A stretch of 64,000 nucleotides of DNA from a virus (IMGVR_UViG_3300031963_008158:1-64000), one strand, 5' to 3'. Counted from the stretch's first letter, positions 3,337 through 49,304 are shown. Made by a program: numbers and translations. Notes: generated by a model not told the origin, from the letters alone.

Positions 3337-5991
3337 ATGTCAACTAGTAAAATAAAAGTAGTAGGTTATGCGCAAAAGGTAATATACGATAATGGTATAG
3401 AGTATCGTAATTTTTCACCTGACTTAGTTGGTTTACAAACCACAAGTATAGGTAGCACACCATTATTAACATTTGGTAATTTTAGTTTAACAACAAATTT
3501 AGAGCCTAAAAACAATAAGTTTTTTTTAACTAATAAATTTTCTAATTATTATACTTTAAATACATTAAGTGTTACACAACAAACAGCACCAACTATAATA
3601 AATGATAATGAAAAAGCTTATTTAAATTTAGATAAAAGAAATCTAAATTATTATGCTTTGTTTGGTTCTTTAACTGAATATGTAAGAGTTTCATTAGAAA
3701 ATATTATATTAAATTGGCCAGCTTCTTTATATGCAAACCCTATTTTTATTGATATCTTTGGTAGTGAACAAATTGGTTTTACAATAGAAAATTATACTTA
3801 TGATGTTTTAAGTGAAACATCAACATTTAAGGTAAATACAAATACATTAGTAAATAAATTTGGTATTAACTATACAAATAACACAAACCAACAAAATAAT
3901 TTAAGAAATTTAAATATTAATTATTTATCTTATAATATTTTTTATCAAAACCAAGAATATGATATTTTAAACTTTACGGGTTCTACTAATGTAAAAAATG
4001 ATTCAATATATTTTAAGGTAAAAGGTAATCCGTTTTCTGGTTTAACAAATGCCTACCCAACATATCATATAAAACCTAATAAGATTAAATATGATAGCTT
4101 TTTTAACACATTACCAGAACTTGAGGCTTATCTATTAAATCGTTCAGTAGTACCTTTATATACGGCTACATTTTCATTTCCAGTTAAGACTGAAAATGGT
4201 ATTATATTGTATTTTACTGATAGTGTAACATGGCCAGTAAGTGATGGATATAATATTGATTTTGATACAACAGAATATGTTTATTATGCCACAAGGTTAT
4301 TAGATATAGCAAAAAACAATGATATAAATAATAGTGATTTAATGAACAGGTTTTTGGTCGCTGAATCAATAACCGCATTTGATACTTCACCAATATATGT
4401 TACAAATATTGACCATGATGAAACTGGTCAAAAAATGAATAAAACACTTCAAATATATGGTGCTTCATATGATAAAATAAATAATTATATTACTGGTATA
4501 AAGTATGCGAATACTGTAACATATAATAAAATGGATAACACACCAGATATCTATTTAAAAAATATTGCTAGAGTATTAGGATGGGAATTGGTTTCATCAG
4601 TTGTTGAAAACGATTTATTAATGAATTACATTAACACACCAGTATCATCATTTTCTGGTCAAACATATGGTTTAACACCTGTTGAATATGATATTGAATT
4701 ATGGAGAAGAATAATATTAAATTCACCATGGCTTTGGAAATCAAAAGGTAGTAGAAAATCTATAGAATTTTTATTAAATTTTATTGGAACCCCAAATGGT
4801 TTAATTAAATTTAATGAACATATATATAGAGCAACAGCACCAATAGATATTGATTTATTTTTACAAGTATTAAGTAAAAATAATTTAGATTTAGATTTAT
4901 CTATATATCCGATAGATTCTAATGGTTATCCTAGAACTTTACCAGACACACCAGATATGTATTTCCAAAACTATGGTTTATGGTATAGAGAAACTGGTGG
5001 TAGTGGTGCAACAATAGATATTTTAACTGGTAATAATCCGCATTTAGGTCCATATGATGGTGGTTCTAGATATATTGACCAGTTTAGGTGTTTAATACCT
5101 AATTTTGTACCAACAATATTAAGTTCAATAACTGTAACAGAAAACGTAACAAATTTATATGAAAATTATGAAGATGGTACATTTGATAATAATTCTTTAA
5201 CTGCACAAACAGTAACAAATGTAGATATATTTGATGAATTTGGTGCTGCAATTGAAGATTGTGTTATTTTTAAACCAAGTATCATTCAAGACCCTAATTA
5301 TGATTTAAAATTAACAGAATGTGGTTGTAAAGATATTGGTCCAGATAATGTTTTAAGTCTTTGTTTGGAAAAAAATCCTAACCCAGATAATGGTAATTTA
5401 AATGTGTGTCCTGATATATTTGGTAAACCTTCTTCAGATAACACAGGTTTTTTAAATTTTTCATATTATCAAAAAGATATTAATGGTAATTATTTAATTG
5501 ATAATAACGGAAAATTTATTACTAATAACACAAAATATACAACACAAGAATGTTGTAAATCAAACAATGGAACACCAGTTTTAAATAAAGAATATTTTAA
5601 CAATATAGTTATAAATACTGGTTATTATTGTTGTGATAGTACTGGTAAATGTGGTTGTACATTAGCTTGTAAATGGAAAGTAAATATGAATCCATATGTT
5701 TCTGGTCCAGTAACTCAAACACAGATACCTAGGAATTTCTTACAATTCACAACTGAAGATGGTTCACAAGCTATAGTAACACCAGATGGTTGTAATTGTG
5801 TATCACCATATACAATCCCTGTACCAAATATAAAAGACCCATATACAGGTCAAATAGGGTATGCTTGTCAATTAACAGACAAAGGGTTACAAGATTTACA
5901 ATTAGGTATTTATGGTCAAATAAGCAACATTTATTTTCAAAGAAATATTGGTAAAATAAAATGTGACGAATCTGAGTTAAAAACAAAATAA
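3337..5991 (+). CDS. Large tail/baseplate protein with Cys-rich C-terminal region
   Basis: An 884-residue virion protein. The middle carries the segment SPWLWKSKGSRKSIEFLLNF (about residues 464-483), followed by a GTPNGLIKFNE stretch, a conserved-looking block I associate with baseplate or tail proteins of T4-like phages of Bacteroidetes. Residues from about 660 onward contain many Cys pairs (for example CGC, CC, CGCTLAC), suggesting metal binding or disulfides. Its size and place between structural genes fit a baseplate wedge or tail-fibre-attachment protein. The specific assignment is an inference. Confidence 0.6.
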   Translation: MSTSKIKVVGYAQKVIYDNGIEYRNFSPDLVGLQTTSIGSTPLLTFGNFSLTTNLEPKNNKFFLTNKFSNYYTLNTLSVTQQTAPTIINDNEKAYLNLDKRNLNYYALFGSLTEYVRVSLENIILNWPASLYANPIFIDIFGSEQIGFTIENYTYDVLSETSTFKVNTNTLVNKFGINYTNNTNQQNNLRNLNINYLSYNIFYQNQEYDILNFTGSTNVKNDSIYFKVKGNPFSGLTNAYPTYHIKPNKIKYDSFFNTLPELEAYLLNRSVVPLYTATFSFPVKTENGIILYFTDSVTWPVSDGYNIDFDTTEYVYYATRLLDIAKNNDINNSDLMNRFLVAESITAFDTSPIYVTNIDHDETGQKMNKTLQIYGASYDKINNYITGIKYANTVTYNKMDNTPDIYLKNIARVLGWELVSSVVENDLLMNYINTPVSSFSGQTYGLTPVEYDIELWRRIILNSPWLWKSKGSRKSIEFLLNFIGTPNGLIKFNEHIYRATAPIDIDLFLQVLSKNNLDLDLSIYPIDSNGYPRTLPDTPDMYFQNYGLWYRETGGSGATIDILTGNNPHLGPYDGGSRYIDQFRCLIPNFVPTILSSITVTENVTNLYENYEDGTFDNNSLTAQTVTNVDIFDEFGAAIEDCVIFKPSIIQDPNYDLKLTECGCKDIGPDNVLSLCLEKNPNPDNGNLNVCPDIFGKPSSDNTGFLNFSYYQKDINGNYLIDNNGKFITNNTKYTTQECCKSNNGTPVLNKEYFNNIVINTGYYCCDSTGKCGCTLACKWKVNMNPYVSGPVTQTQIPRNFLQFTTEDGSQAIVTPDGCNCVSPYTIPVPNIKDPYTGQIGYACQLTDKGLQDLQLGIYGQISNIYFQRNIGKIKCDESELKTK

Positions 5992-42240: not shown

Positions 42241-42593
42241 GGGGCGATATTAGAATCGACTGGTTATAGTCGTAAGTATTAAGCATGTAGTGTTAGATGG
42301 AAACACTTAAATACCCTATCAAAACAAACAAATGGCAACGATTTAGTTGTTTCTGAAAATTTCCTTAACGAAGTTACATGTAGCTTCGCTGGAGAGCTTG
42401 CGGTAGCCTGATATCGCTGATAGTAATAACTTACTTAATTGTAGTATTTTCTACAACATAATGGTAGTCCATTAGTTTCTAATCAGAGAACTTAACAAAT
42501 TTGATGTATTTTGAATGGTTAGAAAACCATTATAAACATGTAGAAAGGTATTGAAGAATAACCAACACGTTGGTGCAACTCCGACTCGCTCCA
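42241..42593 (+). ncRNA. ssrA: Transfer-messenger RNA (tmRNA)
   Basis: The 5' GGGGCGA pairs with 3' TCGCTCC to give a 7-bp acceptor stem. Its third pair is G-U, the alanine identity element of tmRNA, and the discriminator is A. The T arm is GTTGG-TGCAACT-CCGAC. The tag reading frame ends at TGA (42409-42411) and reads ...GELAVA, a hydrophobic Ala-ending degradation tag. It probably resumes near GTT at 42349 after TTAGTT. CCA is not encoded (the sequence reads CTA). It would rescue stalled ribosomes. A promoter and a terminator frame it. Confidence 0.85.
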
Positions 42594-42596
42594 CTA

Positions 42597-46074: not shown

Positions 46075-46088
46075 ATATTTATTATATA
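46075..46088 (+). promoter_or_regulatory. Late-type promoter motif
   Basis: ATATTTATTATATA, ending at the ATG of the ART/CCA fusion gene, which leaves almost no leader if it acts at the usual distance. Another copy (GATATATATT) overlaps. Confidence 0.4.
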
Positions 46089-47653
46089 TGAAAAACTATA
46101 TTAAATTCAAATTAAGAAACTTATTAAACGAAACGGAATTTAATTACCATAAAGGTGATATAGAAAATGTAGAAAATATAAGACCATATGGTTCAGATAA
46201 TTTATTTCGTATGCAAGGTCGTGGAACTGGGCATTTTGGTTCTGGTCTTTATTTTTCTACTTATAGTTGTGAAAATTTTGATGATTCCGATAACTCAAAA
46301 AAAGAATTAACTAAAATAAAAGATAATATTTATCGTGTTGATTTTGATATTTATAAAAATTTATTTAGGGTTAAATCACCAGACCATGCTGAAATGTTAT
46401 TTAAAACATTAAAACTAATAAATGAAAGTTTTTATTTAGTTGTTAGAGTTTATGATAGCAAATTTGAAATGGATAACAAATTCAAAATTATTTATTTAAA
46501 AATAATAAATAATGCACAATACCTAGGTTTAAATATTCCAAAATATCGTGAATATATAAATATGGTTAAAGAAGCCGCAAATGACATGAAGAACAAAACC
46601 AATTTAGCATCCATGTCAACAAGAATAATGGAGTACAATGGTTTTAATGGTGTTAATGTTAGCGGTATAGATGGGTATGATAATACATTACACGGGTCTG
46701 TTATATATGATTTATCTAAACTATCGTCTAATCCAGTAGAAGTTAAAAACCCAGAACTATTTTGTAAAATAAAACGTGATGTGATAACTAATTTCCCAAA
46801 TATGCGTTCAGATGCTTTAGCTGGTGATAAATTAAGTATTGATTTTTTTAATAAATTAAAAAATAATGAAAAAATAATTTATATAAAAAATTTTGAATAT
46901 TATTTTGAACCTTATCAATTAGATGAGTTAGATGAAAACTTAAAAAAAGTTTATTATAATTCATTACCAATTAAATTTAAGAATGGTTTATTAGAAAAAT
47001 TACCACATTATAAAATGGTTAAAAAAATGATTGATGATGGTTATATTAAATTAATTTATGATGAAAACATTAAAGTAAATGATGTAACTATATTAGAAGA
47101 TATTTTAGAAGATTTTTGGAAGTATGATGAAAAACATCAAGAATTGATTTTAAAAAACATAAATAGACCATTAAATGATGAAGAAGAACGTTTATTAAAT
47201 AACGTGAAAGAAGATGATGAATATAAACAATTTTTTACCGAAAACGAAAATAAATTAAATACTTCATCTGAAATAAGAATTAAATATGATATTAACTTAC
47301 CAAAGGACATAATAGATATTAAAGATATTTTTGTTAAGAATGGTTATGATTTATATCTTGTTGGTGGTTCAGTAAGGGATGTTTTACTAAATAAAGAACC
47401 AAAAGATTATGATTTAGCAACAAATGCTAAACCAGATGATATTGAAAACATATTACAAGAAAACGGTTATAAAACAATAGCAACAGGAAAAGCATTTGGT
47501 GTCATTAATGTTATAACAGATAGTGATGAATATGAAATAGCCACATTCAGAATAGACCAATATAAAGGTTATGATTTAGAAGGGTTTAAAGATTATTTAA
47601 AACGTTTAAATAATGGTAGTTACGAAAAATTTTTAACTAAATTAATGAAATAG
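46088..47653 (+). CDS. ADP-ribosyltransferase-like domain fused to N-terminal half of CCA-adding enzyme (split)
   Basis: A 521-residue protein. Residues 1-15 (MKNYIKFKLRNLLNE) form a leader-like segment. Residues about 18-230 resemble an ADP-ribosyltransferase: YHKGD, GTGHFGSGLYFST, and YNGFNGVNVSGIDGYDN followed by HGSVIYDLS. A helical middle follows. From about residue 418 there is a tRNA nucleotidyltransferase head: LYLVGGSVRDVLLNKEPKDYDLAT with the DxD site, then YEIATFRID. The gene stops soon after and a GIY-YIG gene follows. The rest of the nucleotidyltransferase is encoded from 48411. The fusion and the split are both unusual. Confidence 0.7.
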   Translation: MKNYIKFKLRNLLNETEFNYHKGDIENVENIRPYGSDNLFRMQGRGTGHFGSGLYFSTYSCENFDDSDNSKKELTKIKDNIYRVDFDIYKNLFRVKSPDHAEMLFKTLKLINESFYLVVRVYDSKFEMDNKFKIIYLKIINNAQYLGLNIPKYREYINMVKEAANDMKNKTNLASMSTRIMEYNGFNGVNVSGIDGYDNTLHGSVIYDLSKLSSNPVEVKNPELFCKIKRDVITNFPNMRSDALAGDKLSIDFFNKLKNNEKIIYIKNFEYYFEPYQLDELDENLKKVYYNSLPIKFKNGLLEKLPHYKMVKKMIDDGYIKLIYDENIKVNDVTILEDILEDFWKYDEKHQELILKNINRPLNDEEERLLNNVKEDDEYKQFFTENENKLNTSSEIRIKYDINLPKDIIDIKDIFVKNGYDLYLVGGSVRDVLLNKEPKDYDLATNAKPDDIENILQENGYKTIATGKAFGVINVITDSDEYEIATFRIDQYKGYDLEGFKDYLKRLNNGSYEKFLTKLMK

Positions 47654-47697
47654 CGACTTTTAGATTAATCCATGATATTTATAATAAAAAGAATGTC

Positions 47698-48405
47698 ATG
47701 GAATCAAAATATTATGTCTATGTTTACCTAGACCCAAGAAAAAAAGGTGAATTTACATATGGTGATTATAAATTTGAATATGAACCATTTTATGTTGGAA
47801 AGGGATGTTACAAAAGATGCTTAGAACACTTAAACCCTAATAGGATGAAGTGTGATAATAACACATATAAAATTAGAAAAATTAATAAAATAATAAATAT
47901 TGGTTTAAAACCAATAATTTTAAAAATTAGTGAAAATATATTTGAAGTTGATGCTTTCGAGTTAGAAAAAAAATTAATATTAGTTATTGGTAGGAATGAT
48001 TTAAAAAATGGTCCATTAACCAACCTTACCAATGGAGGCGATGGTGTTTCTGGTCACATAAGGTCGTTAGAGTATAGGAATAAAATCAGTCAAAACAATA
48101 AAAATAGGGAGGTTAGTAATATAACAAGAGAAAAAATAAGTCAATCATTAATTGGTAAACCTGGTAGAAATACTGGTAATAAACACAGCGAAGAGACTAA
48201 AAAACAAATATCAGAAACCAAAAAAGGTACTTTGTCTTGGAACGCAACACCAGTATTACAATTATCTAAAGATAGTGAATTAATTAAAGAATGGGTTAGT
48301 GCAACAGCAGCAGCAAAAGAATTAGGGTTGAGTCAAGGCAATATTTGGTCGGTAATAAATGGTAATAGAAATAAGTGTGGTGGTTATAAATGGAAATTAA
48401 AATAA
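47698..48405 (+). CDS. GIY-YIG homing endonuclease with NUMOD domains
   Basis: A 235-residue protein. The GIY-YIG core is YYVYVYLDP...EPFYVGKGCYKRCLEHL, with the downstream Glu in VDAFELEKKLI and NLTNGGDG. NUMOD3-type repeats follow (HSEETKKQISETKKG), then a C-terminal DNA-binding IENR1-like motif (VSATAAAKELGLSQGNIWSVI). It lies exactly where the CCA-adding enzyme gene is interrupted. Only 45 nt precede it and almost none follow, so there is no room for a group I intron core outside the ORF. I infer a free-standing insertion. Confidence 0.85.
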   Translation: MESKYYVYVYLDPRKKGEFTYGDYKFEYEPFYVGKGCYKRCLEHLNPNRMKCDNNTYKIRKINKIINIGLKPIILKISENIFEVDAFELEKKLILVIGRNDLKNGPLTNLTNGGDGVSGHIRSLEYRNKISQNNKNREVSNITREKISQSLIGKPGRNTGNKHSEETKKQISETKKGTLSWNATPVLQLSKDSELIKEWVSATAAAKELGLSQGNIWSVINGNRNKCGGYKWKLK

Positions 48406-48410
48406 TTAAA

Positions 48411-49304
48411 ATGGAAAATTGGGAACAAATAGCTAAAGAATTCTTTAAAAAAGAATTTGAAGATTATGAAAAAACTTTAGCTGATAAAAGAAGACCAGAT
48501 TCAGTCGAATTCACAGATATATATCAAGATGTGCTAAGAAGAGATATAACAATAAATGCTTTATTTTACGATATTAAAAATAAAGAAATTGTTGACCTTG
48601 TTGGTGGTATTGAAGATATAAAAAATGGTGTGATTAGAACCGTTGGTAAACCAGAAGATAGATTCAATGAAGATAGACTTAGGATTTTAAGAGTTCTAAG
48701 ATTCTCAGCCAGATTAGATAGTGATATAGACCAACAAACAGATGAAGCATTACAAAAAGATGCTAGTTTAGAAGGTATATCTGCTGAGAGAGTAAAAGAT
48801 GAATTTATTAAAGGAATTAAATCAGCTAAAAATGTTTCTTTCTTTCTATCTTTAATAGATAGATATAATTTATTTGATTGGATTTTTCCTAAACTTAATA
48901 TTAATAAGAATTTCAAAAACTTAACAGATGATTATATCATAACAATATCAACTTTATTAAAATTAAATAACCCTAAAAACATTGGTAACAAATTAAATGA
49001 ATTAAGATACACTATTGATGAGATAAGAAACATTCAATTTTTACTTAGTTTTTTAAATATAAGTATTGATACAGCCGTAGCATTAAAAAAGATGCAAAAA
49101 AATATAACATTGAATGATGAACAAATAAAAAAATTCGGTCAAATAAATAATTTAGATAAAAAGTTAGTTGATGCTTTTATAGATTTTGAATTGTCTGTTA
49201 ATTCACAAGAAGTAATGGATAAATTTAATCTTAAACCTAGTCAAGAACTTGGTAATAAAATAACATCGTTAGAAACAGATAACTTTAAAAAAACAATTAA
49301 ATAA
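48411..49304 (+). CDS. C-terminal part of split CCA-adding enzyme
   Basis: A 297-residue protein. After MENWEQIAKEFFKKEFEDYE come RRPDSVEFTD, DVLRRDITINALFYD, DLVGGIEDIKNGVIRTVG and RFNEDRLRILRVLRFSARL. These are the motifs that normally follow the YEIATFRID found in the upstream ORF. Together the two pieces cover the class II tRNA nucleotidyltransferase. I start at ATG 48411; the in-frame ATG at 48390 lies inside the GIY-YIG gene. If the halves associate, the enzyme could add CCA to phage tRNAs and tmRNA, none of which encode it. Confidence 0.8.
   Translation: MENWEQIAKEFFKKEFEDYEKTLADKRRPDSVEFTDIYQDVLRRDITINALFYDIKNKEIVDLVGGIEDIKNGVIRTVGKPEDRFNEDRLRILRVLRFSARLDSDIDQQTDEALQKDASLEGISAERVKDEFIKGIKSAKNVSFFLSLIDRYNLFDWIFPKLNINKNFKNLTDDYIITISTLLKLNNPKNIGNKLNELRYTIDEIRNIQFLLSFLNISIDTAVALKKMQKNITLNDEQIKKFGQINNLDKKLVDAFIDFELSVNSQEVMDKFNLKPSQELGNKITSLETDNFKKTIK

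What the first reader, a model, noticed from the sequence alone, without database searches (positions are those of the whole stretch)
46088..49304. CCA-adding enzyme split by a GIY-YIG endonuclease gene without an intron
The upstream ORF ends with nucleotidyltransferase motifs (GGSVRDVLL, KDYDL, YEIATFRID) and the downstream ORF resumes with RRPDSVEF, RRDITINAL and RFNEDRLRILR. Between them is a complete GIY-YIG/NUMOD gene with only 45 nt before it and essentially none after it. This leaves too little space for a group I intron core. The result would be a two-polypeptide enzyme, similar to T4-family genes split by mobile endonucleases.
Basis: partly seen in the sequence, partly recalled or inferred. 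Interest (0 to 1): 0.66.

Follow-up and report, generated by a model that had tools for sequence, protein, structure and literature searches.

The report
Mobile element splits CCA enzyme, adds tails
A selfish DNA-cutting gene in these uncultured phages repeatedly inserts into the gene for the tRNA-finishing CCA enzyme, cutting it into two proteins, and brings along two short protein tails that probably hold the halves together, so the phage tolerates the parasite without any intron.

Summary
In detail: an N-half (46088-47653), a GIY-YIG/NUMOD endonuclease gene (47698-48405) and a C-half (real start probably 48411) of a class II CCA-adding enzyme. Against intact relatives the insert is about 937 nt, of which about 230 nt lie outside the endonuclease gene, enough for a small intron. 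Those extra bases encode two protein tails absent from intact enzymes: a C-terminal tail on the N-half (about 30 aa) and an N-terminal tail on the C-half (about 26 aa). I found nine more split cca loci at the same site with homologous tails. Split alleles are scattered among intact ones and have intact sisters (one pair 98.5% identical in flanking DNA), so the cassette is mobile and carries the tails. The tails evolve as protein, show no RNA structure or intron match, and one locus keeps both without the endonuclease. The split falls in the flexible loop that switches CTP to ATP. Best reading: an intronless homing cassette whose tails reassemble the enzyme from two polypeptides, as in phage Aeh1 NrdA, but recurrent. 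A conserved out-of-frame copy of the target site upstream of the endonuclease gene resembles I-TevI's operator. Assembly and activity are untested.

The parts
46088..47653 (+). N-half gene: ~394-aa unassigned N-terminal extension (46088-47269), then first part of the class II nucleotidyltransferase head (motif A GGSVRD...KDYD, ends at EIATFRID), then N-tail
47534..47551 (+). coding target sequence for EIATFR, left edge of the insertion site
47558..47650 (+). N-tail: QYKGYDLEGFKDYLKRLNNGSYEKFLTKLMK, absent from intact enzymes, homologous in 9 split loci
47644..47664 (+). conserved DNA block AATGAAATAGCGACTTTTAGA: out-of-frame copy of the EIATFR target (47647-47664, 15/18 identical to the exon, differences only synonymous); overlaps the N-tail stop; proposed operator or relic
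47675..47682 (+). ATATTTAT box, a promoter-like motif enriched upstream of ORFs in this window, 23 nt before the endonuclease ATG
47698..48405 (+). GIY-YIG (LEM-3-like) / NUMOD3 / I-HmuI-like NUMOD homing endonuclease gene
48411..48488 (+). C-tail: MENWEQIAKEFFKKEFEDYEKTLADK, N-terminal tail of the C-half, absent from intact enzymes, homologous in 10 split loci
48411..49304 (+). C-half gene: C-tail, then RRPDSVEF onward (motif B RRDITINA, motif D EDRLR, RNA-binding part); longest ORF starts at 48390 but the conserved start is 48411

Best explanation
The region is a cca gene carrying an intronless homing cassette. The cassette is one mobile unit: N-tail coding segment, target-site copy and promoter-like box, GIY-YIG endonuclease gene, C-tail coding segment. 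It inserts where the gene encodes the flexible loop of a class II CCA-adding enzyme, between FRxD and (G)RRPDSV. Steps and status: (1) the endonuclease cuts intact cca alleles and the cassette is copied in by repair (inferred from its family and from split/intact sister alleles); (2) insertion replaces the loop and gives the two halves tails that are part of the cassette (shown by comparison with intact sisters); (3) no RNA or protein splicing occurs; two proteins are made (inferred from absence of intron or intein features and from protein-level selection on the tails); (4) the tails, predicted helical hairpins, bind each other or the partner half and hold the enzyme together (inferred, by analogy with Aeh1 NrdA-a/NrdA-b); (5) the enzyme still serves phage tRNAs, which lack encoded CCA (inferred); (6) the endonuclease may repress its own gene by binding the target-site copy (inferred, weaker).
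For: Ten distinct split cca loci at one site, all with homologous tails. Tail models match both tails in exactly the eight split records among 47 searched and full-length in none of the intact ones. Insert bounds: L008 vs intact L080 homology stops at 3975/4014 and resumes at 5075/4027; L006 vs intact L007 is 98.5% identical beyond the C-tail, which L007 lacks. Tree: 10 split rows need 10 changes, at least 5 forced, with sister pairs L006/L007, L008/L080, L044/L047 at 100% bootstrap support. The endonuclease C-terminal 100 aa are more alike than the CCA body in all 36 pairs, mean 68% vs 47%. N-tail core pN/pS 0.38 vs 1.07 and 1.66 in shifted frames; C-tail 0.56 vs 1.00 and 1.07. L097 keeps split and tails with no endonuclease gene. 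Catalytic motifs A, B and D present in 8 of 9 loci with both halves. No intron RNA. AlphaFold of an L044 read-through: both halves form one fold (core pLDDT >90; PDB 6q52 TM 0.76 by target, E 3e-10), tails helical; the C-tail of the window's C-half is two helices. Window tRNAs lack CCA. The junction aligns to TFRTE-SSYSDN-RRPDSVEF of PhaCCA, the flexible loop region (PMC8563995).
Against: No expression, interaction or activity data. Tail confidence in AlphaFold is modest (pLDDT about 50-72), the read-through had only two tail-bearing rows, and contacts between the tails could not be inspected. C-tail pN/pS of 0.56 is only moderate. A very divergent intron could escape Rfam. Several split loci sit on long branches and one (L114) has lost motif D's Asp, so some copies may be decaying. 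Records are metagenomic fragments.
Confidence: 0.77

Rival explanations
1. A self-splicing intron (group I or an unknown type) containing the endonuclease gene; the tails are just read-through of intron sequence and the mature mRNA encodes one intact enzyme.
For: About 230 nt outside the endonuclease gene, and a 328-nt endonuclease-free insert in L097, are long enough for small group I introns (about 206 nt in Jug phages, PMC12363816). Phage endonuclease genes often sit in introns.
Against: No Rfam intron match in the window or nine other split loci, nor at E<=10 around the window insert or in L097. RNAalifold finds no consensus pairs on the upstream side in eight loci; L097 insert folding z-score -1.15. 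Tails show protein-level selection, in-frame length changes and a conserved start codon.
Confidence: 0.07
2. The gene is simply broken: insertion inactivated cca and both halves are decaying remnants; the host enzyme does the work.
For: Long branches for several split copies; L114 lost the Asp of motif D and the RRPDSV loop.
Against: Open frames and motifs A, B, D kept in 8 of 9 loci across deep divergence; tails themselves conserved; split retained in L097 without the endonuclease.
Confidence: 0.09
3. Tails are remnants of a split intein that trans-splices the halves.
For: Endonuclease genes between split-intein halves are known (fractured genes, Dassa et al. 2009; from memory). None of the tool results favours it.
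Against: Tails of about 31 and 26 aa are too short; no consistent Cys/Ser/Thr at the N-junction and no HN-C/S/T at the C-junction (sequences, read by eye).
Confidence: 0.02
4. The two halves work as a two-chain enzyme, but the tails mainly replace the flexible loop and change activity (for example CC-only addition) or bind tRNA, not mainly glue the halves.
For: The split lies in the loop that mediates the CTP-to-ATP switch and is deleted in bacterial CC-adding enzymes (PMC8563995, PMC7014341).
Against: The basic/acidic residues before the loop (FRxD/E) and RRPD after it are kept in nearly all split loci. One N-tail helix and the C-tail core look like amphipathic helices (p about 0.03), which suits an interface.
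Confidence: 0.12

Closest known systems
Aeromonas phage Aeh1 nrdA-a / mobE / nrdA-b (Friedrich et al. 2007; Crona et al. 2011)
   Same: Homing endonuclease gene without intron splits an enzyme gene; both halves carry extra tails; reviews state the split RNR is fully functional as (alpha-a+alpha-b)2 beta2 (PMC2988022, PMC3267527); the tails are described as interaction domains derived from the mobile element (title of Crona 2011; paper itself not held; details from memory).
   Different: Different host gene, an HNH rather than a GIY-YIG endonuclease, and no sequence similarity between tails. Here the same tails recur in ten loci with scattered gains; Aeh1 is a single case.
Split gene 43 (DNA polymerase) of Aeromonas phage 25 and T4 gene 60/mobA
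   Same: Genes split near endonuclease insertions, halves co-purify or assemble (PMC2988022).
   Different: No conserved mobile tails described in the passages read; different genes.
T4 td intron endonuclease I-TevI
   Same: GIY-YIG enzyme; its operator, upstream of its ORF at the promoter, resembles the homing site 15/20 nt (PMC2988022), like the 15/18 target copy here.
   Different: I-TevI lies in a self-splicing intron; none found here. Repression not tested here.
Class II CCA-adding enzymes (PhaCCA 6ibp/6q52, B. stearothermophilus 1miv)
   Same: Sequence and fold of the assembled halves.
   Different: Solved enzymes are one chain with a short flexible loop; here the loop is replaced by two tails on separate chains.
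Bacterial and eukaryotic CC- plus A-adding enzyme pairs
   Same: CCA addition shared by two polypeptides; the same loop region is involved (PMC7014341).
   Different: Those are two whole enzymes with partial activities, not two halves of one.

Membership tests
Class II CCA-adding / poly(A) polymerase-like nucleotidyltransferase (PF01743) | PolyA_pol head domain | tested here: met
   complementary parts 1-72 and 69-126 in the two ORFs, above cut-off
Class II CCA-adding / poly(A) polymerase-like nucleotidyltransferase (PF01743) | motif A GGxVRD...DxD, motif B RRDxTxNA, motif D EDxxR | tested here: met
   all present in the window; L114 alone lacks EDxxR
[quoted passage not shown]
   interrupted and replaced by tails
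Class II CCA-adding / poly(A) polymerase-like nucleotidyltransferase (PF01743) | adds CCA to tRNA (not CC or poly(A)) | not testable with these tools
   needs an assay
GIY-YIG homing endonuclease | GIY-YIG domain plus NUMOD DNA-binding repeats | tested here: met
   PF22945, PF07460, PF22083 above cut-off; phrog_314 homing endonuclease
GIY-YIG homing endonuclease | mobility into alleles lacking the element | tested here: met
   inferred from scattered split/intact sisters; not shown biochemically
Group I intron | conserved catalytic RNA core | tested here: not met
   no Rfam match, no conserved pairs
Split intein | splice-junction residues and splicing blocks | tested here: not met
   tail sequences, read by eye; no intein family among Pfam matches of the halves
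Endonuclease-split gene with interaction tails (Aeh1 NrdA type) | intronless endonuclease gene between two parts of one gene | tested here: met
Endonuclease-split gene with interaction tails (Aeh1 NrdA type) | element-derived tails on both halves | tested here: met
Endonuclease-split gene with interaction tails (Aeh1 NrdA type) | tails required for assembly and activity | not testable with these tools
   needs co-expression
Endonuclease-split gene with interaction tails (Aeh1 NrdA type) | tails homologous to Aeh1 tails (not required for the same kind of solution) | tested here: not met
   no alignment at E<=100

The most novel reading that the evidence does not exclude
A third way for a homing element to be harmless: neither RNA splicing (intron) nor protein splicing (intein) but a mobile cassette that carries a matched pair of protein-interaction tails, so that each insertion automatically yields a working two-chain enzyme; repeated gains across diverse phages show that the tails are part of the mobile unit, and the split can become permanent after the endonuclease is lost.
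Probability: 0.6. Interest if true: 0.78.

Novelty: new variant of a known kind. Interest (0 to 1): 0.64.

Why it matters
Introns and inteins explain how homing elements avoid killing the genes they invade; a cassette that brings its own assembly tails is a little-studied third answer, known to me from one phage RNR. This family gives about ten natural replicates with intact sister alleles, an endonuclease-free descendant and an easily assayed host enzyme. [quoted passage not shown] The tails could be useful as a natural protein-pairing module.

Tried and rejected
tblastn of the short tails against isolate phages found nothing (short queries are insensitive). Tail-only scans of IMG/VR found no tail on any gene other than cca. 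Group I intron and split intein considered and rejected as above. Homology to Aeh1 tails rejected. The Crona 2011 paper is not held. The L097 gap shows no convincing endonuclease remnant. The EIATFR copy is not beyond chance locus by locus everywhere (null matches 0-45 of 200), but it recurs at the same position in all nine loci with an N-half, though diverged in L008, whose best-scoring match lies elsewhere.

Full report
Observation. The window holds three consecutive + strand ORFs: 46088-47653, 47698-48405, 48390-49304. The outer two carry complementary parts of one PolyA_pol domain (profile positions 1-72 and 69-126), the last also the RNA-binding part; the middle one is a GIY-YIG/NUMOD3/I-HmuI-like NUMOD endonuclease. 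The 115.7-kb record has no other PolyA_pol match, nor do ten other records with split genes; all are fragments, so a second copy is not excluded.

The tails. The window's N-half does not stop at the junction: it continues for about 30 residues (QYKGYDLEGFKDYLKRLNNGSYEKFLTKLMK), and the C-half begins with about 26 residues (MENWEQIAKEFFKKEFEDYEKTLADK) before RRPDSVEF. The insert is thus about 937 nt, not 750, so the 'no room for an intron' argument fails.

More cases. Scans of IMG/VR with the C-half, with an alignment, with each tail and with the endonuclease gave nine further distinct split loci: L006, L008, L014, L036, L044 (same arrangement in four records), L097, L108, L113, L114 (ORFs). 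All split at the same place, all with homologous tails: N-tail pattern F..[YF]LK..N...[YF]..F...LMK-stop with some variation in the nine loci with an N-half (the tenth contig, L006, ends before it), C-tail pattern M..W..IA....P.E[FY]..[FY] with some variation. Tail models searched over 47 phage records hit full-length, both tails together, in exactly the eight records known to be split. No tail was seen on any other gene.

Mobility. L008 and its intact sister L080 are 81-88% identical on both sides; homology stops at the FR codons and resumes at GRRPD, so roughly 1.1 kb replaces about 12 nt and both tails lie inside the insert. L006 matches intact L007 at 98.5% starting just after the C-tail. 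In a tree of 68 CCA C-bodies the ten split rows need ten changes, at least five forced by well-supported branches; L006/L007, L008/L080 and L044/L047 are split/intact sisters with high support. The endonuclease's C-terminal 100 residues are more alike than the CCA body in all 36 pairs (mean 68% vs 47%). The cassette, tails included, has therefore most likely spread horizontally. The endonuclease itself exists with two different GIY-YIG domains joined to one conserved C-terminal part.

Protein, not RNA. The N-tail core has pN/pS 0.38 in frame and 1.07/1.66 in the other frames; the C-tail 0.56 against 1.00/1.07. Lengths vary by whole codons and the C-half start codon is conserved. No Rfam intron match appears in the window or nine loci, nor at E<=10 around the window insert or the L097 insert; RNAalifold finds no common pairs upstream of the endonuclease in eight loci; the L097 insert folds little better than shuffles (z -1.15). 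L097 keeps split and tails with only 145 nt and no endonuclease gene between the halves.

Function. Catalytic motifs A, B and D are kept in 8 of 9 loci with both halves. An AlphaFold model of the L044 read-through (N-half, endonuclease, C-half in one frame, stops as Gly) puts both halves in one fold with pLDDT above 90; Foldseek aligns it along its whole length to class II CCA enzymes (6q52: TM 0.76 by target, E 3e-10). Tails are predicted as helices with modest confidence (about 50-72); one N-tail helix and the C-tail core are weakly amphipathic (p about 0.03). That the tails bind each other is inference. The window's tRNA genes lack encoded CCA, so CCA addition is needed by phage tRNAs.

The site. 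The junction aligns to TFRTE-SSYSDN-RRPDSVEF of the Planococcus enzyme. [quoted passage not shown] Whether the two-chain enzyme adds the final A is an open question.

Target copy. In all nine loci with an N-half, the N-tail's stop codon lies in a DNA block, consensus AATGAAATAGCGACTTTTAGA (diverged in L008 and L114), that reads EIATFR in another frame; in the window it differs from the real exon copy only at synonymous positions (15/18). It sits just before an ATATTTAT box that is enriched upstream of ORFs in this window (14 of 81 ORFs, against 1.4% of random stretches). I-TevI represses itself by binding an operator that resembles its homing site 15/20 nt (PMC2988022), so autorepression is the likeliest use; a relic of the original insertion is the alternative.

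Known relatives. The closest system is Aeh1 nrdA-a/mobE/nrdA-b, a functional split RNR. Its tails and HNH endonuclease are unrelated in sequence. It works like that system; whether tails are required here is untested. I file it as a new variant of that kind: new gene, new endonuclease class, and recurrence that shows the tails to be part of the mobile unit. Searches of the held literature found no description of a split phage CCA enzyme, which is not proof of absence.

Noticed in passing
window 46088-47269: About 394-aa N-terminal extension fused to the CCA N-half, not seen in the other split relatives; no Pfam or PHROG match; by eye it resembles an ADP-ribosyltransferase-like region.
   Followed up: partly
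window 42241-42596: Match to tmRNA (RF00023, 48.5 bits, cut-off 47) in a phage genome, near tRNA genes.
   Followed up: no
L008 4787-5032; L014 3687-3998; L036 3817-4044; L044 3799-3999; L108 4480-4683 and 4625-5020: Different small ORFs of unknown function between the endonuclease gene and the C-half in several split loci; those tested had no Pfam match.
   Followed up: partly
window 47698-48405 vs L008 4128-4802 and L044 3143-3817: Two different GIY-YIG catalytic domains joined to the same conserved DNA-binding C-terminus: domain swapping within one homing-site lineage.
   Followed up: partly
L060, L062-L065, L076, L085: Intact cca domain embedded in very long open frames (roughly 800 to 2,000 aa), apparently part of giant fused phage proteins.
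   Followed up: no
L114 3803-5456: Split CCA enzyme with motif D changed to EHRIR and the RRPDSV loop changed to TKPETAY: possibly altered or dead enzyme.
   Followed up: no
window 48429-48434 and equivalents: C-tail codons ATA-GCW are invariant at DNA level in all ten split loci, more than protein conservation demands; may be a DNA site.
   Followed up: no
window, upstream of many ORFs: ATATTTAT box mostly about 21-34 nt before start codons in 14 of 81 ORFs: likely a phage promoter motif.
   Followed up: partly
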